A DNA stretch of 44,362 nt. Source: a bacterium (lineage in GTDB: Bacteria; Sysuimicrobiota; Sysuimicrobiia; Sysuimicrobiales; Segetimicrobiaceae). Of this stretch, positions 17,602 through 35,724 are shown in pieces. Position 1 is the first letter of the stretch. Each line of letters starts with the position of its first letter. The position numbers and the translations under genes were made by a program. Below the pieces are notes generated by a model. The model had not been told where the DNA came from, made no database searches, and worked only from the letters and a program-made list of their open reading frames with translations. Location of the stretch: positions 1 to 44,362 of the forward strand of contig DATGHU010000017.1 of NCBI GenBank assembly GCA_035307765.1. Direction: 5' to 3'.

Positions 17602-18495
17602 ATGGTAGGGAAACGGTTGATTCCTGTTGGTGGCGTGGTGGCACTGCTGGTCCTGATGGTCCTGGGGAGCGGGTCCGTGCCGGTGGCGAGCGGCGCGCCG
17701 AACTGTCCGCCCAAGGTCGCGCATCCCCCGCTCGTCCAGACCGGCACGCTGATCGGCGCGATCAACCCCACGGTGCCGCCGATCCAGTACGTCGACAAGG
17801 ACGGGAAGATCGTCGGCCTGGACGTCGACCTCGGAAACGAGGTCGCCAAGCGCCTCTGCCTGACCATGCAGTTCTGGAGCCTGCAGTTCGCGACGATGAT
17901 CCCCGGCCTCAAGGACGGCCGGTTCGACATGATCGACTCCTTCATGTTCTACACCGAGGAGCGGGCGGCTCAGGTCATCATGATCCCGTACGGCGCGAGC
18001 ACCTTGGCGATCCTGGTGCCGCGGTCCGACACCGACAAGATCACGGGACCGAAGGACTTTTCCGGGAAGAAGTTCGGCGTCGAACTCGGCACCGTGGATG
18101 CGAACGACGCGACGAAGGCCGACCAGGACCTGAAGGCCGAGGGCAAACCGGGGATCGAGGTCCACACCTTCGCCAATTACTCCGATGTGCTGCAGGCGCT
18201 GCGGGCCGGCCAGGTGGACGCCGCGTTCGTCGGCACGGAGGAGGCCTACTACTACCAGCGGCAGGGACAGACGTTCTTCCGCGTCGCCCTCACCGGGTAC
18301 GATCCGCACGCGGAGGCCCTGGCCTTCAAGGACCGCGACCTCGCCGATCGGGTGGCGGGGGTGCTGAACCAAATGAAGCAGGACGGCTCCCTGGACAGGA
18401 TCTTCGCGCCGTACCACCATTGCCTCTTGCCGGGCCCCTACCAGGTCACGACCGGCCCGCTGCCGCCCCCAGCCTGCCAAAGCACGGGCGGGTAG
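17602..18495 (+). CDS. Polar amino acid-type ABC transporter substrate-binding protein (SBP_bac_3)
   Basis: 297 residues, secreted: signal peptide KRLIPVGGVVALLVLMVLGS, cleavage near VASGA. GGGGAGGGGAG precedes the ATG at 17602. The fold is given by LIGAINPTVPPIQYVDKDG, then IVGLDVDLGNEVAKRL, GRFDMIDSFMFYTEERA and GKKFGVELGTVDAND, which match HisJ/GlnH-type periplasmic proteins. The usual ligand arginine contact seen as S.T.ER in amino acid binders is MFYTEERA here, so the ligand may differ. It is followed by a cognate permease and ATPase. The downstream acyl-CoA genes make a carboxylate or amino acid derivative a reasonable guess. Confidence 0.9.
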   Translation: MVGKRLIPVGGVVALLVLMVLGSGSVPVASGAPNCPPKVAHPPLVQTGTLIGAINPTVPPIQYVDKDGKIVGLDVDLGNEVAKRLCLTMQFWSLQFATMIPGLKDGRFDMIDSFMFYTEERAAQVIMIPYGASTLAILVPRSDTDKITGPKDFSGKKFGVELGTVDANDATKADQDLKAEGKPGIEVHTFANYSDVLQALRAGQVDAAFVGTEEAYYYQRQGQTFFRVALTGYDPHAEALAFKDRDLADRVAGVLNQMKQDGSLDRIFAPYHHCLLPGPYQVTTGPLPPPACQSTGG

Positions 18496-18528
18496 CCCGT
18501 GACCAGCGGGGAATGCGCGGCGTAGCCC

Positions 18529-19281
18529 ATGTGGCACTGGCCGGCATTCTTCGGCAACCTGGTCAGTCCGTATCTGCTGGCCGGCGCGTGGACGACGCTC
18601 TGGCTGTCCACCGCCTCGATGGCGATCGGCCTGTGTTGCGGGATGATCGCCGCCCTGATGCGCCTCTCCAGCAAGCCGATCCTCAACCTGCCGGCCTTCT
18701 TCTATATCTGGCTGATGCGGGGGACCCCGGTCCTGGTCCAGCTGATCATCATCTTCACGGCGCTCCCCCAGATCGGGATCAGGCTGAACGTCGTCCAATC
18801 GGCGTTGCTCGGCCTCGGCCTGAACGAGGGGGCCTACCTGGCGGAGATCATCCGCAGCGGGATTCTCGCCGTGCCGAAAGGGCAGTTCGACGCCGCCCGA
18901 TCGGTCGGCATGCCCTATCCGATGATGATGCGCCTGATCGTGTTCCCGCAGGCGCTTCGGGTGATCGTCCCGCCGCTCGGCAACACATTTAACAGCCTGC
19001 TGAAGACGTCCTCGCTGGCCTCCGTGATCTCGATGGACGAGCTGCTGCGGCGCAGCGAAGTGCTGATCCAGCTGCGGTTCGAGGTCCTGGAGATCCTGAT
19101 GGTGGCGGCGCTCTACTACCTCGTGTTCACGACGGTGTGGGGCTTGATCCAATCCCGCATCGAGGCCTACTTCTCGCGCAGCGTGGCCCCCTATCACGGC
19201 TCGCGCCCGGGTCCGACGGGGCGGACGCCGGGTATGGTGGAGCAGATCGAGCAGTCGCTGCTCGCCCACGATGCCCAATAG
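18529..19281 (+). CDS. Amino acid ABC transporter permease (HisM/GlnP-type)
   Basis: 250 residues with about five membrane helices. Hallmark features are [20 protein letters not shown] at the start of the transmembrane domain, [14 protein letters not shown], and the EAA loop [20 protein letters not shown] that docks on the ATPase. Only one permease gene is present, so a homodimer is expected. It begins 33 bases after the binding protein and ends 8 bases before the ATPase start, so the three form one importer. Confidence 0.92.
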
Positions 19282-19289
19282 CCGCGACG

Positions 19290-20084
19290 ATGCCGCCGTC
19301 TCCTAAGGGCGCGGACGCTCGGGACGCCGTGCTCGAGGTCGCGGACGTCCACAAGTTCTTCGGGCGCCAGCACGTGCTGAAGGGCATCAGCATGCGGGTC
19401 AGCAAGGGCGAGGTGGTGGTGATCGTCGGCCCGAGCGGCGGCGGCAAGAGCACGTTCCTCCGGATCATCAACCACCTGGAACGGGCCGACCAGGGATGGG
19501 TCAAGGTCGGCGGGCATCTGATCGGCTATCGCGAAGCGGGCGGCCGCCTGGTCGAACTGTCGGAAACGAGGATCGCCAAGCACCGCAGCGAGATCGGGAT
19601 GGTCTTTCAGCAGTTCAACCTCTTCGCCCACCTGACCGCGCTCGAAAACATCACCGTCGCGCCGGTGAACGTGCTCAGGGTCGCCCGCCGGACCGCGGTC
19701 GACGACGCCCGGCGGCTGCTCGCTCTGGTGGGCCTTTCCGACAAGGCGAGCGCCTATCCCGAGCAGCTGTCCGGCGGCCAGCAGCAGCGCGTGGCGATCG
19801 CCCGGGCGCTGGCCATCCACCCCAAGCTCATGCTGTTCGACGAGCCGACCTCCGCCCTCGATCCCGAGATGGTGACCGAAGTCCTCGACGTGATGCTCAA
19901 GCTGTCCCGGGACGGGATGACGATGGTCGTCGTCACGCACGAGATCGGGTTCGCCCGCGCCACCGCCGACCGGGTGGCCTTCATGGAGGGAGGACGGATC
20001 GTGGAGGAAAATATGCCGGATCGGTTCTTCGCCAATCCCGAGAACGAGCGCACGCGGCAGTTCCTGAGCAAGGTCCTGCGGTGA
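19290..20084 (+). CDS. Amino acid ABC transporter ATP-binding protein (GlnQ-type)
   Basis: 264 residues from the ATG at 19290. Walker A is GPSGGGKST, the Q-loop sequence is [14 protein letters not shown], the signature is LSGGQQQR and Walker B is [14 protein letters not shown], followed by the H-loop [10 protein letters not shown]. The end [18 protein letters not shown] is typical of GlnQ/HisP. It energises the importer formed by the two preceding genes. Its stop overlaps the start of the crotonase gene by one base (TGATG), so uptake and catabolism are translated together. Confidence 0.94.
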
Positions 20085-20878
20085 TGGCGCCGGAGGCCCG
20101 CTACGAGACGATCGCGCTCTCGCACGACGGGGGCGTGTCTCGGCTCACGCTCAACCGGCCCCCGCTCAACCTGGTCACCTCGACCCTGCTGGAGGAGGTC
20201 ATCGCGGCCCTCGACCTCCTCGAGCAGCGGGGGGAGACCCGGGCGGTGATCCTGACCGGCGCGGGGGACCGCGCGTTCTGCGCCGGCGCCGACCTGGGCG
20301 AGGAGTCGCGCGGGGGAGGGGACGGCGGGTACCGGTTCCGGAAGCGCGGCCAGGCGCTCGTCGATCGGCTCGAGACGTTTCCGAAGCCGACCGTGGCCGG
20401 GATTCGGGGTTGGTGCATCGGCGGCGGGACCGCGCTGGCCTGGCCGTGCGACATCCGGCTGGCCTCCACCACGACGAAGTTCCGGACCGCCGATGTCTAC
20501 CTCGGCCTCGTCCCCTCCTGGGGGATGGGCTTCGTCCGGCTCGTGCACTACGTCGGGCGCAACCGAGCGATGGACATGCTCCTCCTCGGCGAGGATGTGG
20601 GCGCGGAGGAGGCGCTGCGGATGGGCCTGGTCAGCCGGGTGGTGCCGGACGATCGCTTCGACGCCGAACTCGCCCGCATCGCGCTTCGGCTGGCCGGCTC
20701 GGCGCCGATCGCCGTGCGGGCGGTGAAGGAGGCGATCCGCGCGCAGTACCGCGATGGGTACGACCGCGCCAAGGTCCTCGAGGAAAGCTGGGCCGACCTC
20801 GTGGCGGCGACCGACGACGCGCACGAAGGGGTGGCGGCGTTCAAGGAAAAGCGCCGCCCGGCCTTCAAGGGTCGCTAG
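20084..20878 (+). CDS. Crotonase (enoyl-CoA hydratase)-fold protein lacking both catalytic glutamates
   Basis: 264 residues of the crotonase superfamily, which bind acyl-CoA and stabilise an enolate. The first oxyanion contact is in FCAGADLG (A67-G68) and the second in CIGGGTALAW (G114). In rat enoyl-CoA hydratase the two glutamates that add water sit in GGGCE and FGQPE. The equivalents here are A117 (GGGTA) and D137 (FRTAD), so simple hydration is doubtful. Isomerase, hydrolase, lyase or another crotonase chemistry is possible. The ATG overlaps the ATPase stop, and an acyl-CoA dehydrogenase gene follows 10 bases later. Confidence 0.88.
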   Translation: MAPEARYETIALSHDGGVSRLTLNRPPLNLVTSTLLEEVIAALDLLEQRGETRAVILTGAGDRAFCAGADLGEESRGGGDGGYRFRKRGQALVDRLETFPKPTVAGIRGWCIGGGTALAWPCDIRLASTTTKFRTADVYLGLVPSWGMGFVRLVHYVGRNRAMDMLLLGEDVGAEEALRMGLVSRVVPDDRFDAELARIALRLAGSAPIAVRAVKEAIRAQYRDGYDRAKVLEESWADLVAATDDAHEGVAAFKEKRRPAFKGR

Positions 20879-20888
20879 GGGCCGCCGG

Positions 20889-22037
20889 GTGGACTTCCGC
20901 CTCACTCCCCGGCAGCGGGAACTGCAGGACCGCGCACGCGAGGCGGTGGAGCGGGTCGTCGCGCCCGTCGCCTCCGGGGTGCTCCCCGGGCAGAAGCTGA
21001 CGCCCGACCAGCTCCGCGGGATCTACGCGGGCCTGCGCCCCCTGGGCTACCTCGGCAGCACGGTCCCCGAGTCCGCCGGCGGAGCGGGGATGACGAACGT
21101 CGACTACGGCCTGCTGCTCGAGGCCCTGGCGCACGGTCCGGTCCTGCTCGGCGAGGTGGTGCTGCCGCGTCTCGTCCACCGCCTCGGCAACGCCGACCAG
21201 CAGCGCCGCTGGCTCGGCCCACTGCTGGCGGGAGACTGGATCTCCACCTCCGCGATCACCGAGCCGCAGGCCGGGAGCGACGTGCGTGGCATCCGGACCG
21301 CCATCGTCCGCGCCGCCGACGGGCTGCGCCTCCGGGGGCGCAAGAAGTGGATCAAGCTCGGCGGCGTCTCCGACCTCATGGCGGTGCTGATCGTGACGGA
21401 CCCGGAGCGCGGCGCCGCCGCCGGCACGAGCCGGATCGTCGTGGAGCGCGCGCGTTCGCCCTGGCAGGCGGTCGAGGTCGAGGGGGTGGGGATGCGTAAC
21501 CTCAGCTGGGCGGAGATCATCTTCGACGACGTCCCCGTCGACGCCGGGAACCTGCTGGGGAGCCCGGGGGAGGGCACCGAGGCGTTCTACCGCGGGATCG
21601 AGGCCTCCCGCGCCTTCGTCGCGATCGAGGCGGTGGGCATCGCCGACCACGCCCTCTCCATCGCCAAGGCCTACGTCCGCGAGCGCAGCGCCTTCGGCCG
21701 GCCCCTCGCCAAGTTCCAGGACATCCAAGGGAGGCTGGCCGATGCCGCCGCCGAACTGGACGCGGCGCGCCTCCTCTCCCTGCGCGCGCTGGCCCTCCTC
21801 GACGCCGGGGAGCGCTGCCCGCTCGAAGCCTCCATGGCCAAGGCGTACGCCACCGAGGCGGCGGTGCGGGTGTGCGGTGACGCCATGGACTGCATGGGAG
21901 CCCACGGGCTCTCCCAGGAGGCCGGGGTCGAGGAGTGCTGGCGGACCGCGCGGATGCTGACGGTGATCGACGGCACCTCGGCCATTCAGCGCCTCATCGT
22001 CGGACGCGAGCTCCTGGGGGAGGCCGCCTTTGTCTAG
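20889..22037 (+). CDS. Acyl-CoA dehydrogenase
   Basis: 382 residues from a GTG at 20889, FAD-dependent enzyme that makes an alpha-beta double bond in acyl-CoA. The FAD-site signature TSAITEPQAGSDV, the middle-domain WIKLGG and the C-terminal RSAFGRPLAKFQDIQGRLAD helices are all present. The usual base in the C-terminal YEGTS.IQR motif is aspartate here: D361 in VIDGTSAIQR. Asp at this place occurs in many bacterial paralogues and may slow or redirect catalysis. It precedes an NDP-forming acyl-CoA synthetase, which would supply its CoA substrate; the electron acceptor gene pair is not in the window. Confidence 0.92.
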   Translation: MDFRLTPRQRELQDRAREAVERVVAPVASGVLPGQKLTPDQLRGIYAGLRPLGYLGSTVPESAGGAGMTNVDYGLLLEALAHGPVLLGEVVLPRLVHRLGNADQQRRWLGPLLAGDWISTSAITEPQAGSDVRGIRTAIVRAADGLRLRGRKKWIKLGGVSDLMAVLIVTDPERGAAAGTSRIVVERARSPWQAVEVEGVGMRNLSWAEIIFDDVPVDAGNLLGSPGEGTEAFYRGIEASRAFVAIEAVGIADHALSIAKAYVRERSAFGRPLAKFQDIQGRLADAAAELDAARLLSLRALALLDAGERCPLEASMAKAYATEAAVRVCGDAMDCMGAHGLSQEAGVEECWRTARMLTVIDGTSAIQRLIVGRELLGEAAFV

Positions 22038-24174
22038 CCGCACCACCCCGACCGTTCGCGAGATCCTCCACCCGCGCTCGGTGGCGGTGTTCGGGGCGTC
22101 CGAGAGCACCGACAAGTTCGGCGGCCGGATCACCCACTACCTGATCAGGCACGGGTTCGAGGGGCGGTTGGTGCCGATCAATCCCAGCCACCGCGAGGTG
22201 TTCGGGCGCCCCTGCGTGCCGCGCATCGGCGCCGCCCCCGGCCCGATCGACGTGGCCATCCTCGCCGTTCCCCCCGAGGTGCTCGTGCCGATGGTGGAGG
22301 AGTGCGGGCAGGCCGGCGTCGGGTGCTGCGTCATCCTGACGATCGGGTTCGCGGAGACGGACACCCCCGAGGGCGTCGCCGCCCAAGCCCGCCTGGTCGA
22401 GCTCAGCCGGCGGTACGGGATCCGGCTGGTCGGCCCCAACTGCCTCGGCCTGATCAACCCGCACCACCATCTGGCCCTGACCTCCTCGGTGGCGATGGAG
22501 GTGCCCGCACTGATCCCGGGCGCGATCGGGCTGATCAGCCAGAGCGGGGCGCTGATGGTATCCATCCACAACCGGGCCCACGCCTCGGGGATCGGCTTCA
22601 GCGCCTGCGCCTCGCTCGGGAATCAGGCGGACCTCGAGATCTGCGACTTCCTGGAATACATGGTCGAGGATCCGCTGACGCGGGCGATCTGCCTGTACGT
22701 GGAGGGGTTCAAGGATCCGATGCGGTTCCTCCGCGCCGCCGAATCCGCACAGCGGGCGAGGAAACCGGTGATCATGGTCAAGGTCGGGCGGACCGGCCCG
22801 GGCGTGCGCGCCGCCAAGTCGCACACGGCCAGCCTGGCCGGTGACTTCGCCGTCATCGAGGCCGCCTGCCGGGAGCGGGGGGTGATCCTCACCGACGACC
22901 CCAACGACGGGATGGTGCAGGCCGCCGACGTACTGGCCCGCTGGGGCGCGCCGCGCGGGGACGGGATCGGCGTCCTCTCGCCGTCCGGCGGCGGGGTGTC
23001 GGTCACCGCCGACCGGTTGACCGAGCGCGGCCTCCGGCTGGCCGCGCTCCACCCCTCGACCCGGGACCGCCTGCGCGGCCTGCTGCTTCCGCCGCAGGTG
23101 AACAACCCGCTCGATCTGGGCGGGCGCCTCTCCGCCGACATCATCGAGAACGCCGGCCAAGCCATGGCCGCGCTGGCGGCCGACCCGGACGTGTCGGCCC
23201 TCATGATCATGCTCAGCACCACGCCGTTCTTCGCCGAGGTGACGCGCGAGCTGGCCAAGGCCGCGCTCGCCTCGGGGAAGCCCGTGGTGACGATCGTGAT
23301 GCCGGGGTCCGCCGCCGACCGCCCCAGGGAGGTCCTGCGCCAGAGCGGATGCCCGTTCTACGACCGGCTGGACGACGGCGTGCGGATCTGGGAGATCTGG
23401 ACCGCGTACTGGCGGGCGCTCCAGCGCCCGGCCATCGTGCCTCCGGGAGACCCGCCGCGCCCCGCCGGCGCGGCGGAGGCGCTGCGCCGGGCTCCCGCGG
23501 GCGCCCTCACCGAGCCCGAGGCGAAGACGCTGATCGCGGCGTACGGCATTCCCGTCACCCCGGGCCGGATGGCGGCGACGGGCGACGAGGCGGTCGCCGT
23601 GGCCGGGGCGATCGGGTATCCGGTCGCCCTGAAGGCGGTGTCGCGTCGGGTGGTGCACAAGACCGAGGCGGGGGCGGTGCGCCTCAACCTGGCCGACGCC
23701 GCTTCGGTGCGCGAGGCGTTCGCCGCGGTCGCCGACGCGGTCCGCCGCTACGACCCGGCCGCGGTCGTGGAGGGCTGCCTGGTCCAGGCGATGGCGCGGG
23801 CGGAGGCGGAGGTGATCGTCGGCGTCCGCCGCGACCCCCAGTTCGGCCCCGTCGTCCTGGTCGGCGCCGGCGGCATCCTGGCCGAGCTGATGCGGGACGT
23901 CCAGATCGCGCTGGCCCCGGTCTCGGTCGAGCGTGCGCGAGAGATGCTCCGAGCGCTTCGGGTCTGGCCCGTGCTGGAGGGCCTTCGAGGACGACCGGCG
24001 CTCGATGCCGACGCGGTCGCCGAGATCGTGAGCCGGATGAGCTGGCTGGGGGCCGATCTCGACGGCCGCCTCGTCGACCTGGAAGCGAACCCGGTGCTGG
24101 TCCGCCGGGCGGGGGAGGGGGCGGTGGTGGTCGACGCCCGCGGCGCCACGCAGGGAGGGCCGTCCGATGCCTGA
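22030..24174 (+). CDS. NDP-forming acyl-CoA synthetase (acetate-CoA ligase, ADP-forming type), alpha-beta fusion
   Basis: 714 residues from a TTG at 22030 that overlaps the dehydrogenase stop by 8 bases. It makes or breaks CoA thioesters through a phosphohistidine with ADP/ATP. Order: CoA-binding Rossmann domain (SVAVFGASES, about 16-140), ligase domains with the phosphorylated histidine H265 in KSHTASLAGD, and a C-terminal ATP-grasp domain (about 490-700; ALKAVSRRVVHKTEAGAV then VGVRRDPQFGPVVLVGAGG). A fused alpha-beta protein of this kind is standard. It likely activates the acid imported by the adjacent transporter for the dehydrogenase and crotonase; that order is inferred. Confidence 0.92.
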   Translation: MSSRTTPTVREILHPRSVAVFGASESTDKFGGRITHYLIRHGFEGRLVPINPSHREVFGRPCVPRIGAAPGPIDVAILAVPPEVLVPMVEECGQAGVGCCVILTIGFAETDTPEGVAAQARLVELSRRYGIRLVGPNCLGLINPHHHLALTSSVAMEVPALIPGAIGLISQSGALMVSIHNRAHASGIGFSACASLGNQADLEICDFLEYMVEDPLTRAICLYVEGFKDPMRFLRAAESAQRARKPVIMVKVGRTGPGVRAAKSHTASLAGDFAVIEAACRERGVILTDDPNDGMVQAADVLARWGAPRGDGIGVLSPSGGGVSVTADRLTERGLRLAALHPSTRDRLRGLLLPPQVNNPLDLGGRLSADIIENAGQAMAALAADPDVSALMIMLSTTPFFAEVTRELAKAALASGKPVVTIVMPGSAADRPREVLRQSGCPFYDRLDDGVRIWEIWTAYWRALQRPAIVPPGDPPRPAGAAEALRRAPAGALTEPEAKTLIAAYGIPVTPGRMAATGDEAVAVAGAIGYPVALKAVSRRVVHKTEAGAVRLNLADAASVREAFAAVADAVRRYDPAAVVEGCLVQAMARAEAEVIVGVRRDPQFGPVVLVGAGGILAELMRDVQIALAPVSVERAREMLRALRVWPVLEGLRGRPALDADAVAEIVSRMSWLGADLDGRLVDLEANPVLVRRAGEGAVVVDARGATQGGPSDA

Positions 24175-25351
24175 GGATCCGGCCGGAGGGGCGCGCACCT
24201 CCTACGGCGGGCCGACGATCGATGCCTGCGCCCACCACCACTGGACGAATCAGCTGGAGCTGATGGAGTACATGCCGGAGGGGTGGCGCGAGTTCCTGGG
24301 ACGCCCGGGCGCGTTTCCCGGCGGCGGGGTGATGGCCGCCGTCCCGGTGCACAAGTACCAGCACCCGGAGGGCGACAAGCTGACCGAGGCCTGGCCGGAG
24401 GCGGGTGGTCCGCCCGGCTCCGACCTGGACACCCTTCGGCATCAGCTGCTCGACCGGAACCGTCTGGAGCGGGTCGTGCTCGCGCACGACGCGGCGATCG
24501 TGGCGCCGACGATGCCCAACCACTATCTGGCGCTGGAGGTCGCCAAGGCGGCCAACACGTGGTCGGCCGAGCGGTGGATCGGCCGCGACGAGCGGATCGC
24601 CTGCCTGGCCATGGTCCCGAACCAGCTCCCCGACGAAGCGGCCAAGGAGATCCGCCGGATCGCCGCCACCCCCGGCTTCGTCGGCGTCGTGATGGGGGGC
24701 AACGGGCTGGGGAAGCCGTTCGGCCATCCCGTCTACCACCCGATCTACGAGGCGGCGGCGGAGTGCGATCTGCCCGTCGTGCTGCACGCCGGCGGGGACG
24801 CGACCCCGGATGTGATCACCCACACCGCCGGCGGCGGGCTGCCGGCGACCTACGCCGAGTACGAGGTGCTGAAGGCGCAGCCGGTCATGACGCACCTCGT
24901 GAACATGATCGTGCAGGGGGTCTTCGAGAAATACCGCGGGTTCCGCCTGATGGTGGCCGGCGTCGGCATCGCCTGGCTGCCGTCGCTGTTCTGGCGCTTC
25001 GACACGAACTACAAGACCTTTCGCCGCGAGGTCCCCTGGCTGAACCGGTCGCCGAGCGAGGTGCTCTGGAGCAGCATCCGGATCGGGACGTGGCCGCTGG
25101 AGCAGGCGCCGGGACGCGAGGCGCTGGTGCGGCACATGCGCGCCTTCGGGCCCGTCGAGGATCTCCTCTGCTACGCCAGCGGCTACCCCGACCGGGAGAT
25201 GGATCCCGCCGCGGCCGCATCCGAGCGGCTGCCGGCGGAGTGGCACGCCAAAGTCTTTCACACCAACGCCGCGGGGTTCTACCGATGGCCGGGCGGGAGC
25301 CCTCCGCGCGGCCCCGGCACCGCCGCCGGGGGCGGGACCTCCCCGCCGTAG
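24167..25351 (+). CDS. Amidohydrolase-family paralogue A, metal site largely lost
   Basis: 394 residues, TIM-barrel amidohydrolase_2 (ACMSD/decarboxylase-like) relative, starting 8 bases inside the previous gene. It clearly aligns with the next gene over its full length (shared GLGKPFGHP, YHPIYEAAA, GVFEKYR and WLP segments). Conserved metal/catalytic positions are changed. D-V-H of the intact copy is C21-A-H23 here (DACAHHHW), the glutamate in VENGVSW is missing (VAGVGIAW), and TDYPHW is SGYPDR, with G339 replacing the conserved aspartate. H207 (VVLH) is kept. I expect an inactive or altered subunit that may pair with copy B. The tail (375-394) is Gly/Pro-rich and disordered. Confidence 0.85.
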   Translation: MPEDPAGGARTSYGGPTIDACAHHHWTNQLELMEYMPEGWREFLGRPGAFPGGGVMAAVPVHKYQHPEGDKLTEAWPEAGGPPGSDLDTLRHQLLDRNRLERVVLAHDAAIVAPTMPNHYLALEVAKAANTWSAERWIGRDERIACLAMVPNQLPDEAAKEIRRIAATPGFVGVVMGGNGLGKPFGHPVYHPIYEAAAECDLPVVLHAGGDATPDVITHTAGGGLPATYAEYEVLKAQPVMTHLVNMIVQGVFEKYRGFRLMVAGVGIAWLPSLFWRFDTNYKTFRREVPWLNRSPSEVLWSSIRIGTWPLEQAPGREALVRHMRAFGPVEDLLCYASGYPDREMDPAAAASERLPAEWHAKVFHTNAAGFYRWPGGSPPRGPGTAAGGGTSPP

Positions 25352-25423
25352 GCCCGCGGTGCGCCCGGAGCCTGCGCCGTGTCGTATAATCAGCGCAGAC
25401 GTCCGCAAGGGAGGCGGGGAGCG

Positions 25424-26554
25424 ATGCGGTACGGCGGCCCGTGCATAGACGCCGACGTCCACCACGATTGGGCGTCGGAGGCGGAACTCCACCAGTACCT
25501 GTCCAAGGAGTGGCGGGAGTACGTGCGGCTGCCGGGGAAGACGACGAACCGCATTCGCCCCGCCACGATGGCGTACCCGCACACCGGCGGCACGAACAAG
25601 CGCATCGACACCTACCCGCCCAACGGGGGCGGCCCGGGATCGGACTACGCCACGATGAAGCGCCAGCTCCTCGATCCGCTGGACGTCCGGGCGGCGATCC
25701 TGTCGTACAGCATCGGCCACAACGCCGCGCTGCCGAATCTCTACCTGGCGACCGCCGTGTGCCGCGCCGCCAACGACTGGTCGATCGACCGCTGGCTGGA
25801 CGGCCGCGACGACCGGCTCTACGGGGCGGTGCTGGTCCCCACCCAGGTCCCGGACGAGGCGGCGGCGGAGGTCCGGCGAGTCGGCCGCCATCCGAGGATG
25901 AAAGAGGTCATCCTGATCTCCAACGGCCTGGGGAAGCCGTTCGGGCACCCCGCCTACCACCCGATCTACGAGGCCGCGGCCGACGTCGGCCTGCCGGTCG
26001 CGCTCCACGTCGCGGGCGAGCTGAGCGCCACCGGCGCGCACATCGCGGGCGGCGGGGTGCCGAGCACCCGGCTCGAGAACATCACCCTCGCCCCTCAGGC
26101 GGAGCAGCACCACCTCACCAGCCTGATCGCCCACGGCGTCTTCGAGAAGTATCGCGACCTCAAGATCCTGCTGGTGGAGAACGGCGTTTCCTGGCTGCCG
26201 TGGCTCTTGTGGAACCTCGACGACAATTACCGGTACTGGCGGCGGGAGAGCCCGTGGGTGAAGAGGCGGCCCAGCGAGTACGTCCGCGAGCGGGTGAAGC
26301 TGACCACCCAACCGCTGGAGGACCCCGCCCGCCCCGAGCAGCTGATGGAGGTGCTGGAGTCCTTTGGCGGAATGGAGGATCTCCTCTGCTTCGCCACCGA
26401 CTACCCGCACTGGGACGCCGACGATCCGCAGTACATCGCGCGCAAGCTGCCCGAGGCGTGGCTGCCGAAGGTCTTCTACGAGAACGCCCGGGAGTTCTTC
26501 GGCCTGCCGAAGACCGCGCCCGCGCAGGCCGGCGGGGGGACGGCCCGGGGGTGA
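25424..26554 (+). CDS. Amidohydrolase-family paralogue B (ACMSD-like), metal site intact
   Basis: 376 residues from the ATG at 25424, set by AAGGGAGG (25407-25414) 9 bases upstream; the GTG at 25379 would add 15 residues. Amidohydrolase_2 proteins hydrolyse or decarboxylate with a divalent metal. Ligand positions seen: D11 and H13 (DADVHHDW), H195 (VALH), E252 (VENGVSW) and D326 with H329 (TDYPHW). NGLGKPFGHPAYHPIYEAAA is shared with copy A. The pair arose by duplication, and B keeps the active-site residues that A lost. The next gene, a Rieske protein, overlaps its stop. The substrate is unknown. Confidence 0.88.
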   Translation: MRYGGPCIDADVHHDWASEAELHQYLSKEWREYVRLPGKTTNRIRPATMAYPHTGGTNKRIDTYPPNGGGPGSDYATMKRQLLDPLDVRAAILSYSIGHNAALPNLYLATAVCRAANDWSIDRWLDGRDDRLYGAVLVPTQVPDEAAAEVRRVGRHPRMKEVILISNGLGKPFGHPAYHPIYEAAADVGLPVALHVAGELSATGAHIAGGGVPSTRLENITLAPQAEQHHLTSLIAHGVFEKYRDLKILLVENGVSWLPWLLWNLDDNYRYWRRESPWVKRRPSEYVRERVKLTTQPLEDPARPEQLMEVLESFGGMEDLLCFATDYPHWDADDPQYIARKLPEAWLPKVFYENAREFFGLPKTAPAQAGGGTARG

Positions 26555-26916
26555 TCCGGGACGTCGGCCCCCTCGAGGAGTTCCCCGAGTGGCAGATGCG
26601 GATTCTCAGCGTCGGGGGGCGGGAGATCGGCATCGTCCGGCTCGGCCGGCAGGTGTACGCGCTGCGCAACGTCTGTCCGCACCAAGCGGGACCGCTCTGC
26701 CGCGGGCTGGTCTTCGGTAAGGTCGTCGCCGCCGGAGCGGGGCGGGTGGAGGTCGATCGCGAGCATCCCGTCGTCACCTGCCCCTGGCACGGCTGGGAGT
26801 TCGATCTCATGAGCGGCCGCTGCCTGACCGACCGGAGCAAGCGGGTCGCCGTGTACCCGACCGAGGTGCGGGAGAACCGCGTCTTCCTGAGGACCGGGGA
26901 GTCGTCCCGGGGCTGA
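26551..26916 (+). CDS. Rieske [2Fe-2S] ferredoxin-like protein
   Basis: 121 residues from a GTG that overlaps the amidohydrolase stop by four bases (GTGA). Cluster ligands are C42 and H44 in CPHQAG and C77 and H80 in CPWHGWEF, the standard Rieske spacing of paired Cys-His. It is short, with no membrane anchor or oxygenase domain, so it is a soluble electron carrier or a component of an unseen oxygenase. Its coupling to the amidohydrolase pair suggests an electron-transfer partner for a reaction on the same substrate; no oxygenase subunit is in the window. Confidence 0.9.
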   Translation: MIRDVGPLEEFPEWQMRILSVGGREIGIVRLGRQVYALRNVCPHQAGPLCRGLVFGKVVAAGAGRVEVDREHPVVTCPWHGWEFDLMSGRCLTDRSKRVAVYPTEVRENRVFLRTGESSRG

Positions 26917-30686: not shown

Positions 30687-30759
30687 AAGGGTGGGGGCGG
30701 CGGTGTAGCACGTTGTGTGCCCGACCGGGATGCGGACCGAGTCAAAGGGAGGCCAATTG

Positions 30760-32037
30760 ATGAAGGGGTGGAGATCCATGAAGCGGACGGAGTGGAAGCA
30801 AGTTGCCGTAGGGGTGTCGCTGGCCCTGGCGCTGGGGTTCGGCGTGAGCGGCGGTGTCAGCGGGGCCAGCCCGAGCTTCACGATGACGATCGGCGACGTC
30901 GAGCCGTACACCGGCGACCTCGGGCCGCTCGGGGCGCCGGCGGACAAGGCGGTGAAGCTGGCCACGGCGCAACTCAACCAGGCCGCCAAGCAGGCAGGGC
31001 TCAGGATCACCTTCAAGCTGTCGACCGCGGACACGCGGACGGATCCACAGGGAGCGATCCTGGCAGCCCGGCAGGTCATCGATGCGGGGGCGACGTGCCT
31101 CACCGGTCCCGCCACCACCCCCGAGGCGACCGCCATCCTGAACTCGGTCACCAAGCTCAAGCACATCGCCATGATGCCCTCGGCGACGAGCACCAAGCTG
31201 CGGAAGGTGGACGACGGGCACACCATCTTCAGGACCGCTCCGCCGGATAATCTGCAGGCGCGCGCGCTGGTCCTCGCCGTCAAGGGCGCGCTGGGCGCCG
31301 CCCAGGGCAAGACGGTGGCGATCGGCTACCAGAACTCCCCCTATGGCGAGGGACTGGCCAACACCTTCAAACAGGAGTGGACGGCGATGGGGGGAAAGAT
31401 CCAGGGCCCGGTGGGATACGATCCCAACCAGGCCAGCTATGACTCGGAGGCGGCCGCGATCGTGAAGGACAATCCGGACGCCTTCGTCTTCGCCGACTTC
31501 CCGGACACCTTCGGCAAGGTGATCGCCGCGCTGCTGCGCACCGGCAAGTTCTCCGCCAGCAAGCTGTTTGTGTCCGATGCGCTCGCGGTCTCCCCGATCC
31601 CGTCCGCGATCCCAGCGGCCGGCCTGGAGGGAGCCCACGCCACCAACGCCGGGAGCCCCACCGGCACCCCTGAGGCGAAGGCGTTCAACGCGCTCTACCT
31701 GGCCGCGCCCGGGCCGCGGCGCTTCGCCCTCGACGCGAACAACTTCGACTCGGCGATCCTCTGCGGGCTCGCCGCCGTCGCCGCCGGCTCGAACGCCTCC
31801 GCGAAGATCGCCGCCGAGCTGCCCAAGATCTCGGGACCGGCGGGGCAGCCGTTCACCTACCTCAAGCTCTCCAGCGCGATGAAGGCGCTGGCCGCCGGAA
31901 AGCAGATCCACTACGTGGGCGTGTCGGGCCCGATCGACTTCGACTCACGCGGGGACACGAGTTCCGGTACCTTCGATCTCTCGACGTGGAAGAACGGCAC
32001 CCTGGTCCTGGTGCGGAAGATCGACACCAAGGGGTGA
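30760..32037 (+). CDS. Branched-chain amino acid-type ABC transporter substrate-binding protein (LivJ-like)
   Basis: 425 residues, secreted. AAGGGAGG (30745-30752) sits 7 bases before the ATG at 30760. A signal peptide (VAVGVSLALALGFGVSGG) is followed by the type I binding-protein fold: MTIGDVEPYTGDLGPLG, then GAILAARQVIDAGATCLTGP, TPEATAILNSVTKL, AMMPSATSTKL and IFRTAPPDNLQARALV. Members bind leucine-type amino acids, amides, urea or aromatic acids, so the ligand cannot be read off. The complete transport machinery follows, after a 142-base gap with two hairpins. Confidence 0.9.
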   Translation: MKGWRSMKRTEWKQVAVGVSLALALGFGVSGGVSGASPSFTMTIGDVEPYTGDLGPLGAPADKAVKLATAQLNQAAKQAGLRITFKLSTADTRTDPQGAILAARQVIDAGATCLTGPATTPEATAILNSVTKLKHIAMMPSATSTKLRKVDDGHTIFRTAPPDNLQARALVLAVKGALGAAQGKTVAIGYQNSPYGEGLANTFKQEWTAMGGKIQGPVGYDPNQASYDSEAAAIVKDNPDAFVFADFPDTFGKVIAALLRTGKFSASKLFVSDALAVSPIPSAIPAAGLEGAHATNAGSPTGTPEAKAFNALYLAAPGPRRFALDANNFDSAILCGLAAVAAGSNASAKIAAELPKISGPAGQPFTYLKLSSAMKALAAGKQIHYVGVSGPIDFDSRGDTSSGTFDLSTWKNGTLVLVRKIDTKG

Positions 32038-32064
32038 TCCGGAGGAACGCGGTCAAGGGGGGGA

Positions 32065-32110
32065 GAGGGGCCGATCGGGGCCCCTCCCGTCCCGCCGCCG
32101 TCGCGGCGGC
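32065..32110 (+). promoter_or_regulatory. Two tandem hairpins between binding-protein and permease genes
   Basis: First hairpin: an 8-bp stem GAGGGGCC/GGCCCCTC (32065-32072 and 32079-32086) with a 6-base loop. Second: GCCGCC/GGCGGC (32094-32099 and 32105-32110). Neither has a T-run, so they look less like full terminators than like mRNA-stabilising or attenuating structures, which would raise binding-protein output over the permeases. This reading is inferred. Confidence 0.4.
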
Positions 32111-32179
32111 CCCTACCCCAGGCGGCTTCCCCCGGCCGACGCGGCGGCCGGGCCCGCTCGAGGGGAAGGGGCGGGCGGG

Positions 32180-33220
32180 GTGCTGAACGCATCCTGGCGG
32201 TTTGCGGCAAGGCGGCTGGGCTTCCTGGTCCAGCCGCGCACCGCTGAAGCCCCCGCGCGTCCGGCGGGGCCTGCGGCGGGACGCGTCTGGGGATCCGCGG
32301 CGGTCCTGGGGGTGGTCGTCCTGCTCGTCGCCTCCAGGGGGGGCCAGGCGACCGCCCAGGCCACGATCAACGGGCTGGTCACCGGCACCTACTTCGCCCT
32401 GGGGGCCGTCGGGCTCTCCCTCATCTTCGGGGTGCTCCGCCTCGTCAACTTCGCGCACGGCGACATGCTGACGTTCGGCGCCTACATCGCCCTCCTGCTC
32501 AACGTGACGCTCCGCCAGTCGATCGTCACGGCGGTCGCGGGCGGGGTGATCGCGACCGCGGCCTTGGGGGCGGCCTCCGAGCTGGTCATCTGGCGGCCGA
32601 TGCGGGCGCGGCGCGCCGGCGGCCTCCAGCTGCTGCTGATCGCGATCGGGCTGGCCTTCGTGATCCGAAACGCCATCCAGCTCGTCGCCGGGGCGGACCC
32701 GCTCCAGCTCCGGGTGAACGTCACCACCGCGATCGCCCTGCCCGGCGGGCTCCGCGTCGGCACGGTTGAGCTCGTGGTGGTGATCGTCGGACTGGTGGTG
32801 CTGCTCGGGGTCGCCACCCTCCTCCGCTTCAGCCGCCTGGGCAAGGAGATGCGCGCCCTGGCCGACAACCTGACCCTGGCCGAGGTGGCGGGGATCAACA
32901 CCGGCCGGGTCATCGTCACCACCTGGCTCGTTGGCGGCGGCCTCGCCGGGCTGGCCGGGGTGCTCTCCGCGGCGGCCGCCGGGGTGATGACGCCGAACTT
33001 CGGGTTTCAGCTCCTGCTCAGCCTCTTCGCCGCCGCCGTGCTGGGCGGCATCGGCAACGCCTACGGGGCCGTGGTGGGGGGGGTGCTGCTCGGCCTGGCC
33101 GAGGAGTGGTCGACGATGTTCATCGATCCCCGCTGGAAGCTCGCCGTCGGCTTCGCGATCCTCATCCTGACGCTCCTGCTGCGCCCCAGCGGCGTGCTGG
33201 GGAGGCCGGCCCTCAAATGA
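32180..33220 (+). CDS. livH: Branched-chain amino acid-type ABC permease LivH
   Basis: 346 residues from a GTG at 32180. About eight hydrophobic segments; family signature NGLVTGTYFALGAVGLSLIFG then VLRLVNFAHGDMLTFGAYIA, and VLGGIGNAYGAVVGGVLLGL near the end. It carries about 50 extra N-terminal residues rich in Arg, Ala and Pro (WRFAARRLGFLVQPRTAEA) before the first helix, longer than E. coli LivH. Forms the channel with LivM and is coupled to it by a four-base ATGA overlap at 33217-33220. Confidence 0.92.
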   Translation: MLNASWRFAARRLGFLVQPRTAEAPARPAGPAAGRVWGSAAVLGVVVLLVASRGGQATAQATINGLVTGTYFALGAVGLSLIFGVLRLVNFAHGDMLTFGAYIALLLNVTLRQSIVTAVAGGVIATAALGAASELVIWRPMRARRAGGLQLLLIAIGLAFVIRNAIQLVAGADPLQLRVNVTTAIALPGGLRVGTVELVVVIVGLVVLLGVATLLRFSRLGKEMRALADNLTLAEVAGINTGRVIVTTWLVGGGLAGLAGVLSAAAAGVMTPNFGFQLLLSLFAAAVLGGIGNAYGAVVGGVLLGLAEEWSTMFIDPRWKLAVGFAILILTLLLRPSGVLGRPALK

Positions 33221-34179
33221 CGCTCGCGGCCTTCAACCTCGGGGCACTCGGCGCGCCCGATTTCTGGCTCGGGGTCGGCATCGTCGCCGGGATCTACAGC
33301 ATCTTCACCCTGGGGCTGCAGCTGAACGTCGGGTTCACCGGCCTCTTCAACTTCGGCCAGGCCGGGTTCATGGCGGTCGGCGCGTACGCGATGGCGATCC
33401 TGATCCTGAGCTTCGGCTGGTCCCCGCTGCTGGCGCTGCCCGTGGCGACGGGCATCGCCGTGGTGGCGGGGGTCATCGTCGGCATCCCGTCGATCCGGTT
33501 GAGCGGCGACTACCTGGCCATGGCCACCCTCGCCGCGGCGCAGATCGTCGGGAGCGTCGTCCAGAACGCCGGAGGGTTGACGGGGGGCAATCAGGGCCTT
33601 CTGGGATTCGACGCGAGCTGGACGGCGCTCGCCGGCTGGATGCTCGCCCGGCTTTCCGCCGTGGGGCTGGGAGGCGAGAGCCAGGTCCCGCTCTTCGTCG
33701 TCACCTGGCTCACCTTCGGCGTCCTGGTGGTCGTGCTGCGGCTCGTCCTGCGCACGCCGTGGGGCCGCGTGCTGCGGGCGATTCGGGAGGACGAGGCGGC
33801 GGCCGAGGCGCTGGGCAAGAACACGTACGCCTACAAGCTTCAGTCGCTCGGCATCGCCGCGGCCGTAGGCGCCATCGCCGGCTACCTCCTCGCCCTCAAC
33901 GTCACCCTCATCTACCCGCAGGCGTTCTCGGCCGACTTCACGTTCATCGGCTTCGCCATCCTGGTGCTGGGCGGGTTGGGGAGCTTCGCCGGGGTGGCCT
34001 GGGGGTCGATCCTGCTCTGGACCGTGCTCGAGGGCGCGAGCTTCATGCAGCTGCCCATCTCCGCCGACAAGGTCGCCGCGGTCCGGATGCTGATCGTGGG
34101 CCTGGTCCTGATCGGGGTGATGGTGCTGCGTCCGCAGGGCCTGCTGGGGAAGCGCCAGGAGATGGTCCTCCGTGGCTGA
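33217..34179 (+). CDS. livM: Branched-chain amino acid-type ABC permease LivM
   Basis: 320 residues, ATG overlapping the livH stop. Signature YSIFTLGLQLNVGFTGLFNF then GQAGFMAVGAYAMAIL and LSGDYLAMATLAAAQIVGSV; the ATPase-contact region is WGRVLRAIREDEAAAEALG. It is shorter than E. coli LivM, as is usual for the single-domain form. Partner of LivH. Its end overlaps livG by 8 bases. Confidence 0.92.
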   Translation: MTLAAFNLGALGAPDFWLGVGIVAGIYSIFTLGLQLNVGFTGLFNFGQAGFMAVGAYAMAILILSFGWSPLLALPVATGIAVVAGVIVGIPSIRLSGDYLAMATLAAAQIVGSVVQNAGGLTGGNQGLLGFDASWTALAGWMLARLSAVGLGGESQVPLFVVTWLTFGVLVVVLRLVLRTPWGRVLRAIREDEAAAEALGKNTYAYKLQSLGIAAAVGAIAGYLLALNVTLIYPQAFSADFTFIGFAILVLGGLGSFAGVAWGSILLWTVLEGASFMQLPISADKVAAVRMLIVGLVLIGVMVLRPQGLLGKRQEMVLRG

Positions 34180-34972
34180 GCCGGCCGCGGCGCCCCCGTG
34201 GATCCTGGAGGTCCGCGGCCTCTCGCGCAGCTTCGGCGGGCTGCGGGCGGTGGACGGGACGAGTCTGGCGGTCGCCCGCGGCTCGATCACCGCGCTGATC
34301 GGCCCGAACGGGGCCGGCAAGACGACGCTGTTCAACCTGGTGACGGGATTCATCCGGGCCGATCGGGGCGAGGTGGAGTTCGACGGTCACGCTGTGTTCC
34401 GCCGATCCCCGCACGCGATCGCGCGGCTGGGGATGATGCGGACGTTTCAGATCACCAAGGCCCTCGCCGCGATGACCGTGCTCGACAACATGCTGCTGGC
34501 CGCGCGCGACCAGCCCGGCGAGCGGCTGCTCGGCCTGCTCACCCACCCGCGGGGCTGGCGCCGCCGCGAGGCACTGAACCGCGCGCGGGCGATGGAGCTC
34601 CTGGAGCGGTTCCGGCTCCGCGGCCAGGCGGGGGAGTACGCGGGCACGCTCTCCGGCGGACAGCGCAAGCTGCTGGAGCTGGCGAGGCTGTTGATGGCCG
34701 ACCCGCAGCTGGTGCTGCTGGACGAGCCGCTGGCCGGCGTGAACCCGGTGCTCGGCCGGGAGATCCTCTCCCACATCCACGCGCTGAGGCGCGAGCGCGG
34801 CATGACCTTCTTCTTTATCGAGCACGACATGGAAGTGGTCATGAACAACGCCGACGTGGTGATCGTGATGGCCCAGGGCCGGGTCATCGCCCGCGGCGGG
34901 CCCGCGGAGGTGAGGCGCGATCGGGCGGTGATCGACGCCTACCTGGGCTCGCGGGCGGAGGACGTGGGATGA
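34172..34972 (+). CDS. livG: Branched-chain amino acid-type ABC ATP-binding protein LivG
   Basis: 266 residues from a GTG at 34172 inside the livM end. Walker A GPNGAGKTT, the Q-loop sequence MMRTFQITKALAAMTVLDNM, signature LSGGQRKLLELARLLM, Walker B LVLLDEPLAGVNP and the H-loop FFIEHDMEVVM. ATPase of the Liv importer, paired with LivF. The four-base ATGA overlap with livF (34969-34972) couples translation. Confidence 0.93.
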   Translation: MAEPAAAPPWILEVRGLSRSFGGLRAVDGTSLAVARGSITALIGPNGAGKTTLFNLVTGFIRADRGEVEFDGHAVFRRSPHAIARLGMMRTFQITKALAAMTVLDNMLLAARDQPGERLLGLLTHPRGWRRREALNRARAMELLERFRLRGQAGEYAGTLSGGQRKLLELARLLMADPQLVLLDEPLAGVNPVLGREILSHIHALRRERGMTFFFIEHDMEVVMNNADVVIVMAQGRVIARGGPAEVRRDRAVIDAYLGSRAEDVG

Positions 34973-35724
34973 GCGTCGCCGCGGTCGGCCTCCCCCTGCT
35001 CCAGGTGGAGGGCGTCGCCGCCGGTTACGTCCCCGACGTCGACATCCTGGCCGGGGTGGACCTGCACCTCGGTCGAGGCGAGATCGTCACCGTGGTCGGC
35101 CCGAACGGGGCCGGCAAGTCGACCCTGCTCAAGGTGATGTTCGGGCTGCTGCGCCCCCGCGCCGGCCAGGTCCGCCTGCGGGGCGAGCGGGTCGACCAGC
35201 TGACCCCGCACGAGATCGTGGAGCGGGGGATGGGGTACGTCCCCCAGCTGGAGAACGTCTTCCCCTCGCTCACGGTTGAGGAGAACCTCGAGATGTCGGC
35301 GGGCCCGCTGGGGCGGGAAGAGGCGCGGCGCCGGGTGGCGGAGCTGCTGACCCTGTTCCCCGCCCTCGCCTCCGCGCGCCGCCGGCAGGCCGGCCTGCTG
35401 TCGGGCGGCGAACGGCAGATGGTCGCCATGGCCAGGGCGCTCGTGCTCCGCCCCGACGTTCTGCTCCTGGACGAGCCGTCGGCGGGCCTCGCGCCGGGGT
35501 ACGTTGCGCTCGTCTTCGAGAAGATTCTCGAGATCCGCCGCGCCGGCGTCAGCGTGCTGGTGGTGGAGCAGAACGCCCGTCGGGCCCTCGCGTTGTCCGA
35601 TCGCGGGTACGTGCTCGAGCTCGGGCGGAAGCGGTTCGAGGGCAGCGGGCGGGAGCTGCTCGAGAACGAGATGGTGATCGAGCTCTACCTGGGCCGGCGG
35701 CAGGGGAGGGGCACCGATGACTGA
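34969..35724 (+). CDS. livF: Branched-chain amino acid-type ABC ATP-binding protein LivF
   Basis: 251 residues. Walker A GPNGAGKST, YVPQLENVFPSLTVEENL as the Q-loop segment, signature LSGGERQMVAMARALV, Walker B VLLLDEPSAGLAPGY and the LivF-type VLVVEQNARRALALSD at the H-loop place. Second ATPase of the importer. The last 8 bases overlap the M24 peptidase start, so transport and peptide or amide processing are translated together. Confidence 0.93.
   Translation: MSVAAVGLPLLQVEGVAAGYVPDVDILAGVDLHLGRGEIVTVVGPNGAGKSTLLKVMFGLLRPRAGQVRLRGERVDQLTPHEIVERGMGYVPQLENVFPSLTVEENLEMSAGPLGREEARRRVAELLTLFPALASARRRQAGLLSGGERQMVAMARALVLRPDVLLLDEPSAGLAPGYVALVFEKILEIRRAGVSVLVVEQNARRALALSDRGYVLELGRKRFEGSGRELLENEMVIELYLGRRQGRGTDD

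What the first reader, a model, noticed from the sequence alone, without database searches (positions are those of the whole stretch)
24167..26916. Tandem amidohydrolases, one apparently dead, coupled to a Rieske protein
Paralogues A and B align end to end, but A has lost D-to-C (C21), the active-site Glu, the terminal Asp (G339) and the following His, while B keeps D11, H13, H195, E252, D326 and H329. Such a pair, followed by a Rieske gene with a GTGA overlap, suggests a heteromeric enzyme with a catalytic and a structural or regulatory subunit plus an electron carrier. I know of no characterised system of this composition.
Basis: partly seen in the sequence, partly recalled or inferred. Interest (0 to 1): 0.68.

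Follow-up and report, generated by a model that had tools for sequence, protein, structure and literature searches.

The report
Monooxygenase gene pair with dead partner
Two neighbouring genes look like a metal-dependent, oxygen-using enzyme and its catalytically dead twin, followed by the small iron-sulfur protein that would feed them electrons; this resembles a known bacterial enzyme (AibH1H2), but the dead twin arose separately and has lost its metal site more completely.

Summary
A (24167-25351) and B (25424-26554) are 43% identical end to end. B keeps Asp11, His13, His195, Glu252, Asp326 and His329. A has Cys21, His23, His207, Gly265, Gly339 and Asp342 there. A Rieske gene follows B with a GTGA overlap.

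B's six residues are the six ligands of the dinuclear (Fe2 or Mn/Fe) site of 'amidohydrolase-related dinuclear oxygenases' (AROs: AibH2, SfbO, PtmU3). A two-paralogue plus Rieske system of this make-up is characterised: AibH1H2-AibG of Rhodococcus wratislaviensis.

What is new: A is not an AibH1. It arose by a separate duplication inside another ARO clade (A + AibH1 as one clade rejected, AU p = 2.8e-5). Two Chloroflexota genomes carry the same A, B and Rieske genes. One A copy there has lost all six ligands, and all three copies share a remodelled G-x-G / SGYPD site. Other ARO lineages also have ligand-less partners beside an intact ARO and a Rieske gene. So this is a new variant of a known kind: an ARO monooxygenase with a probably metal-free pseudoenzyme subunit. 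Substrate and heteromer formation are untested.

The parts
24167..25351 (+). A: ligand-less ARO paralogue (394 aa, PF04909), proposed non-catalytic partner subunit
   Evidence: 43% identical to B; positions of the six ARO ligands read C21 H23 H207 G265 G339 D342; orthologues in G653 and G471
25424..26554 (+). B: ARO catalytic subunit (376 aa; GTG at 25379 is a longer alternative start) with D11 H13 H195 E252 D326 H329
   Evidence: best solved relatives are the AROs 8sm7, 8sm9, 8sm8, SfbO 8sm6 and AibH2; all six ligands present; AF2 model matches the same structures first
26551..26916 (+). Small Rieske [2Fe-2S] ferredoxin, AibG-like role proposed (C42-x-H44 ... C77-x2-H80), GTGA overlap with B
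   Evidence: Pfam Rieske_2 / Rieske; a Rieske gene adjoins nearly every relative of B
22030..24174 (+). NDP-forming acyl-CoA synthetase, overlaps the start of A by 8 bases; probable member of the same transcription unit
   Evidence: Pfam CoA_binding_2, Succ_CoA_lig, ATP-grasp_5; coordinates
20754..22037 (+). Acyl-CoA dehydrogenase (longest open frame; true start further in), upstream in the same direction
   Evidence: Pfam Acyl-CoA_dh N/M/C domains
17602..20084 (+). Polar amino-acid type ABC transporter: binding protein 17602-18495, permease 18529-19281, ATPase from the 19137-20084 frame
   Evidence: NCBIfam 3A0103s03R and HEQRo_perm_3TM; ABC_tran
30715..35724 (+). Branched-chain amino-acid type ABC transporter downstream (binding protein, two BPD_transp_2 permeases, ATPase); genes of the same transporter type also lie beside the G471 A-B-Rieske set
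   Evidence: for G471

Best explanation
B is the oxygenase subunit of an amidohydrolase-related dinuclear oxygenase (ARO). Its six side chains bind two metals (Fe2 or Mn/Fe); reduced by the Rieske protein encoded next to it, they activate O2 and hydroxylate a C-H bond of a small organic or amino acid. A is a paralogue of B that has given up metal binding and catalysis and works as a structural or conformational partner in an A-B heteromer, as AibH1 does for AibH2. Unlike AibH1, A descends from an independent duplication within B's own clade and most likely has no metal. Shown here: sequence, ligand pattern, family membership of B, conserved linkage, phylogeny. Inferred: metal occupancy, O2 chemistry, heteromer formation, substrate type.
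For: B's closest solved relatives are AROs (8sm7 252 bits, AibH2 198 bits; decarboxylases 52 bits or less), with all six AibH2 ligands (D25 H27 H211 E265 D337 H340 in PMC7782822) present. AF2 models of A and B match SfbO, the other ARO structures and AibH1H2 ahead of all other amidohydrolases. AibH1H2-AibG-AibF is a characterised system, and all four proteins are needed for activity (PMC7782822). A Rieske gene adjoins nearly every relative. A orthologues in G653 (order B-Rieske-A, ligands CHHGGD) and G471 (order A-B-Rieske, then a ferredoxin reductase gene and a second Rieske ferredoxin gene; ligands GYRGGD) sit beside an intact B. The A clade (100/99) and B clade (97/96) have mirrored topologies and similar branch lengths, so A has been kept and co-inherited with B. 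A has codon-position composition like B's (GC3 0.93 against 0.95). Degenerate AROs occur only in gene pairs: 11 of 18 pairs, 0 of 31 single genes (rows are not independent).
Against: No A-B complex was modelled, and no interface was analysed. B's nearest relatives outside the A-B sets are single genes, so this clade does not need a partner in principle. Only three A-type genes were found in about 1,670 genomes searched. C21, H23, H207 and D342 could still hold one metal in the window copy. No dedicated ferredoxin reductase gene was recognised next to the window's set; the own genome shows only a weak Reductase_C match on another contig.
Confidence: 0.73

Rival explanations
1. A is a mononuclear metalloprotein like AibH1: Cys21, His23, His207 and Asp342 bind one structural Zn or Mn ion, and the partner role is the same as that of AibH1.
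For: Window A and G653 A both keep C, H, H and D at these places; AibH1 binds one structural metal (PMC7782822, PMC10401708).
Against: AibH1 keeps all six positions by sequence and uses D, H, H, E, D (PMC7782822); A lost D, E and D. The G471 orthologue has G, Y and R in place of C, H and H, so the site is not conserved within the A family.
Confidence: 0.2
2. A is an independent enzyme with a new activity (for example a metal-free hydratase or decarboxylase step in the same pathway), and does not form a complex with B.
For: The pocket is remodelled in a conserved way (G265-x-G267, SGYPD in 3 of 3), which could mean a new active site; a cofactor-free PF04909 enzyme is mentioned in PMC10811679.
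Against: Always in a pair with an intact B and a Rieske gene, never alone; other ARO pairs with one degenerate member follow the same layout; AibH1H2 gives direct precedent for a complex.
Confidence: 0.13
3. A is a recent duplicate on its way to becoming a pseudogene.
For: Four of six ligands are lost, and the stem of the A clade is longer than that of B (0.34 against 0.18).
Against: Intact frame, GC3 like B's, orthologues in two phyla with similar branch lengths to B (0.58/0.45/1.33 against 0.35/0.44/1.34), and the same replacement residues at the Glu, Asp and last His positions in all copies.
Confidence: 0.03
4. B is an ordinary mononuclear amidohydrolase_2 decarboxylase or hydratase (ACMSD or gamma-resorcylate decarboxylase type), and the Rieske gene is a chance neighbour.
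For: PF04909 contains those enzymes; Pfam alone does not separate them.
Against: Score gap 252 against 52 bits, the complete dinuclear ligand set, and a Rieske gene beside relatives in four phyla.
Confidence: 0.03

Closest known systems
AibH1H2-AibG-AibF, 2-aminoisobutyrate monooxygenase of Rhodococcus wratislaviensis (PDB 6m1w, 6m2i, 8ful-8fuo; PMC7782822, PMC10401708)
   Same: Two adjacent PF04909 paralogues plus a Rieske ferredoxin; one paralogue has the D-H-H-E-D-H dinuclear site, the other is non-catalytic
   Different: AibH1 keeps the site by sequence and binds one metal, whereas A has lost four of six ligands. A and B are clade-mates (43% identical; AibH1/AibH2 28%), and A + AibH1 as one clade is rejected (AU p 2.8e-5). 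No reductase gene recognised adjacent here; different neighbours suggest a different substrate
Single-gene AROs: 8sm7 (Geobacillus Y412MC10), 8sm8 (Afipia), 8sm9 (Cytobacillus), SfbO 8sm6 (PMC10811679)
   Same: B is 33-39% identical to them with all six ligands; small Rieske gene adjacent
   Different: They were picked and solved as single proteins with no dead paralogue; B belongs to another clade
PtmU3, platensimycin/thioplatensimycin pathway hydroxylase (6omp)
   Same: PF04909 dinuclear hydroxylase; hit by both A and B
   Different: Much more distant (60-64 bits), no auxiliary paralogue according to PMC10401708
Amidohydrolase_2 decarboxylases (gamma-resorcylate decarboxylase 2dvt, 5-carboxyvanillate decarboxylase 4icm, ACMSD)
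   Same: TIM-barrel PF04909 fold
   Different: Described as mononuclear Zn/Mn, non-redox enzymes; scores far lower; Rieske association not tested here

Membership tests
ARO (amidohydrolase-related dinuclear oxygenase), protein B | PF04909 TIM-barrel fold, nearest to characterised AROs | tested here: met
ARO, protein B | Six dinuclear ligands Asp-His-His-Glu-Asp-His | tested here: met
   D11 H13 H195 E252 D326 H329
ARO, protein B | Small Rieske protein gene in the same unit | tested here: met
   26551-26916, GTGA overlap, C-x-H / C-x2-H motif
ARO, protein B | O2-dependent C-H oxidation by an Fe2 or Mn/Fe cofactor | not testable with these tools
   Needs purified protein
ARO, protein A | Six dinuclear ligands | tested here: not met
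   C21 H23 H207 G265 G339 D342; G471 orthologue G Y R G G D
AibH1 (non-catalytic subunit of AibH1H2), protein A | Common descent with AibH1 | tested here: not met
   A groups with B at 100/100; A + AibH1 clade rejected, AU p 2.75e-5
AibH1, protein A | Mononuclear site Asp-His-His-Glu-Asp | tested here: not met
   Only the two His remain in A; the alternative C/H/H/D set was not assessed structurally because no coordinates were available
AibH1H2-type heteromeric ARO system | Two adjacent PF04909 paralogues plus Rieske gene | tested here: met
   Window, G653 and G471
AibH1H2-type heteromeric ARO system | Dedicated ferredoxin:NAD+ oxidoreductase (AibF) in the cluster | tested here: inconclusive
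   None recognised beside the window set, but the AibF family itself was not searched for; the G471 set has a Pyr_redox_2/Reductase_C gene; own genome has one weak Reductase_C match on contig C23
AibH1H2-type heteromeric ARO system | Alpha2-alpha'2 heterotetramer | not testable with these tools
   No complex prediction available
Amidohydrolase_2 decarboxylase (ACMSD, gamma-resorcylate decarboxylase) | Closest sequence relatives are decarboxylases | tested here: not met
   52 bits against 252 for ARO 8sm7

The most novel reading that the evidence does not exclude
AROs have repeatedly and independently turned a duplicated oxygenase subunit into a pseudoenzyme: A/B here, the AHHDNx type in the same genus, the DHHEGD type, and some AibH1-clade members. 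In the A family the former dinuclear site has been rebuilt without metal (G-x-G, SGYPD, Arg or His at position 207 with Asp342) into a conserved structure that gates or binds something essential, such as Rieske docking, substrate or a shared active-site wall. This would be a metal-free regulatory TIM barrel inside a metalloenzyme.
Probability: 0.25. Interest if true: 0.66.

Novelty: new variant of a known kind. Interest (0 to 1): 0.52.

Why it matters
AROs are a young enzyme class whose Mn/Fe cofactor hydroxylates strong C-H bonds, and the role of the AibH1 partner is described as elusive (PMC10401708). Attempts to remove AibH1's metal gave insoluble protein. The A family offers natural partner subunits that have already lost the metal site, one of them all six ligands, together with closely related single-gene AROs that do without a partner. 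That makes the question of what the partner is for directly testable, and the recurrence of such pairs suggests a general evolutionary route.

Tried and rejected
The search for related loci in genome contigs with A alone found nothing; with the A+B alignment it returned only single-gene B relatives. A tblastn of plasmids found no A-type gene among the listed hits. A-type searches of class samples around the Thermoleophilia (299 genomes) and Acetobacteraceae (385 genomes) loci found only intact single AROs among the strong matches. The idea that A is simply AibH1 was rejected by tree and ligands. A pseudogene reading was rejected. Contamination or foreign contig: the window's tetranucleotide profile agrees with the rest of its genome and with genus mates (0.92-0.94 on stretches of 14-16 kb). 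The AibH1-AibH2 interface residues named in PMC12141560 (K282, Y287) could not be matched in the chain numbering used, so no interface test was made. No paper uses the PDB name 'TruffO' in the held library.
Full report
**Check of the observation.** The window contains A (24167-25351), B (25424-26554, or from GTG 25379) and a Rieske gene (26551-26916) in one direction. A and B are 43% identical over 382 columns (E 2e-104) and both belong to PF04909. The GTGA overlap of B and the Rieske gene is real, and the Rieske protein has C42-P-H44 and C77-x2-H80.

**What B is.** Among solved structures, B is closest to 8sm7 (252 bits), 8sm9, 8sm8, SfbO (8sm6) and AibH2 (6m1w chain B, 198 bits); gamma-resorcylate decarboxylase scores 52 bits. 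The top structures belong to the amidohydrolase-related dinuclear oxygenases (AROs), which were recognised by a Rieske gene next to a PF04909 gene (PMC10811679). AibH2 binds its two metals with D25, H27, H211, E265, D337 and H340 (PMC7782822); all six are present in B. In AibH1H2 the active cofactor is Mn/Fe and hydroxylates 2-aminoisobutyrate (PMC10401708). B is therefore very probably an ARO monooxygenase subunit.

**A characterised system of this composition exists.** AibH1H2 is an alpha2-alpha'2 heterotetramer of two PF04909 paralogues served by the Rieske ferredoxin AibG and the reductase AibF. All of them are needed for activity, and only AibH2 carries the dinuclear site (PMC7782822). 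AibH1 binds a single metal thought to be structural, and its role is called elusive (PMC10401708; review PMC12141560).

**A is not AibH1.** By sequence AibH1 keeps all six positions. A keeps two. In trees A falls inside the clade of B and of single-gene AROs from Chloroflexota, Thermoleophilia and Acetobacteraceae (100/100); forcing A together with the AibH1 lineage is rejected (AU p 2.75e-5). AibH1 and AibH2 lineages form another pair.

**A is a conserved family.** In about 1,670 genomes searched, two further A-type genes were found, both in Chloroflexota. G653 has B (59% identical to window B), Rieske, A (51% identical to window A, ligand positions C H H G G D). G471 has A, B, Rieske, then a Pyr_redox_2/Reductase_C ferredoxin reductase, a second Rieske ferredoxin and branched-chain amino-acid type ABC transporter genes; its A has G Y R G G D, so all six ligands are gone. 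All three A proteins share G265-x-G267 and SGYPD (338-342). The A clade (100/99) and the B clade (97/96) mirror each other (G471 basal, window and G653 together), and A branches are about as long as B branches. GC3 of A and B is 0.93 and 0.95. A is therefore a maintained protein inherited together with B, not a decaying copy.

**The pattern recurs.** In two genomes of the window's own genus another clade shows catalytic ARO, Rieske, degenerate ARO (A H H D N Y/S/H; L041, L049, L050). G557 has an intact ARO followed by D H H E G D and a Rieske gene (L129). Several AibH1-clade members have also lost ligands (A H Q E H R; D H Q E D H; L130, L131). Among the mapped loci, degenerate AROs occur in 11 of 18 pairs and in none of 31 single-gene loci. 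The rows are related and the search was started from A, so the Fisher value of 1e-6 is only indicative.

**Structure.** AF2 models (A: mean pLDDT 72.5, pTM 0.77; B: 75.9, 0.83; only nine sequences each) give TIM barrels whose best matches are the ARO structures and AibH1H2, with other amidohydrolases clearly behind.

**Mechanism.** NADH-derived electrons reach the Rieske protein (a reductase gene is adjacent in G471; here it would have to lie elsewhere in the genome) and reduce the dinuclear site in B. O2 binds and is activated there and a substrate C-H bond is hydroxylated. A occupies the AibH1 place in the oligomer and stabilises B or shapes its pocket. Shown: genes, ligands, linkage, phylogeny. 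Inferred: everything about metals, O2, complex and substrate. The upstream genes (polar amino-acid ABC transporter, an enoyl-CoA hydratase-like frame judged by eye, acyl-CoA dehydrogenase, NDP-forming acyl-CoA synthetase overlapping A) suggest uptake of an amino or carboxylic acid and later CoA-dependent degradation; this is an inference.

**Verdict.** A real, very probably functional ARO system of AibH1H2-like design whose partner subunit has an independent origin and a largely erased metal site: a new variant of a known kind, of moderate interest.

Noticed in passing
L041:5615-8220, L049:6218-8794, L050:335-1779 (genomes G030, G033, same genus): A separate ARO pair type with order catalytic ARO - Rieske - degenerate ARO; ligand positions of the degenerate member read A H H D N Y/S/H (in L050 the catalytic gene is cut by the contig end).
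   Followed up: partly
L128:6492-8718 (G645): Two adjacent ARO paralogues that are both degenerate (D Q H E A R and G H H G G G), so neither has a complete site; no intact ARO or Rieske gene was seen in the 8.9 kb held, which ends at the contig end.
   Followed up: no
L130, L131, L129: AibH1-clade partners with A H Q E H R or D H Q E D H, and a G557 pair with D H H E G D that shares the GYPD motif of A, apparently by convergence, each beside an intact ARO.
   Followed up: partly
L085:3872-5420 (G471): Beside the A-B-Rieske set lie a ferredoxin reductase (Pyr_redox_2 + Reductase_C) and a second Rieske-type ferredoxin, a fuller electron chain than in the window.
   Followed up: partly
window 27227-28708: UxaE-family (tagaturonate epimerase, PF16257, 458 bits) gene shortly downstream of the Rieske gene, followed by an SDR gene; relation to the oxygenase unclear.
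   Followed up: no
G000:C41:55959-57929 (L042): Own genome has another tandem pair of PF04909 genes that are not AROs by profile and have no Rieske neighbour in the 16 kb held.
   Followed up: no
L078, L079, L080, L081 (G049): An Acetobacteraceae genome carries five ARO pairs, two of them flanking one Rieske gene, suggesting expansion of this oxygenase class.
   Followed up: no
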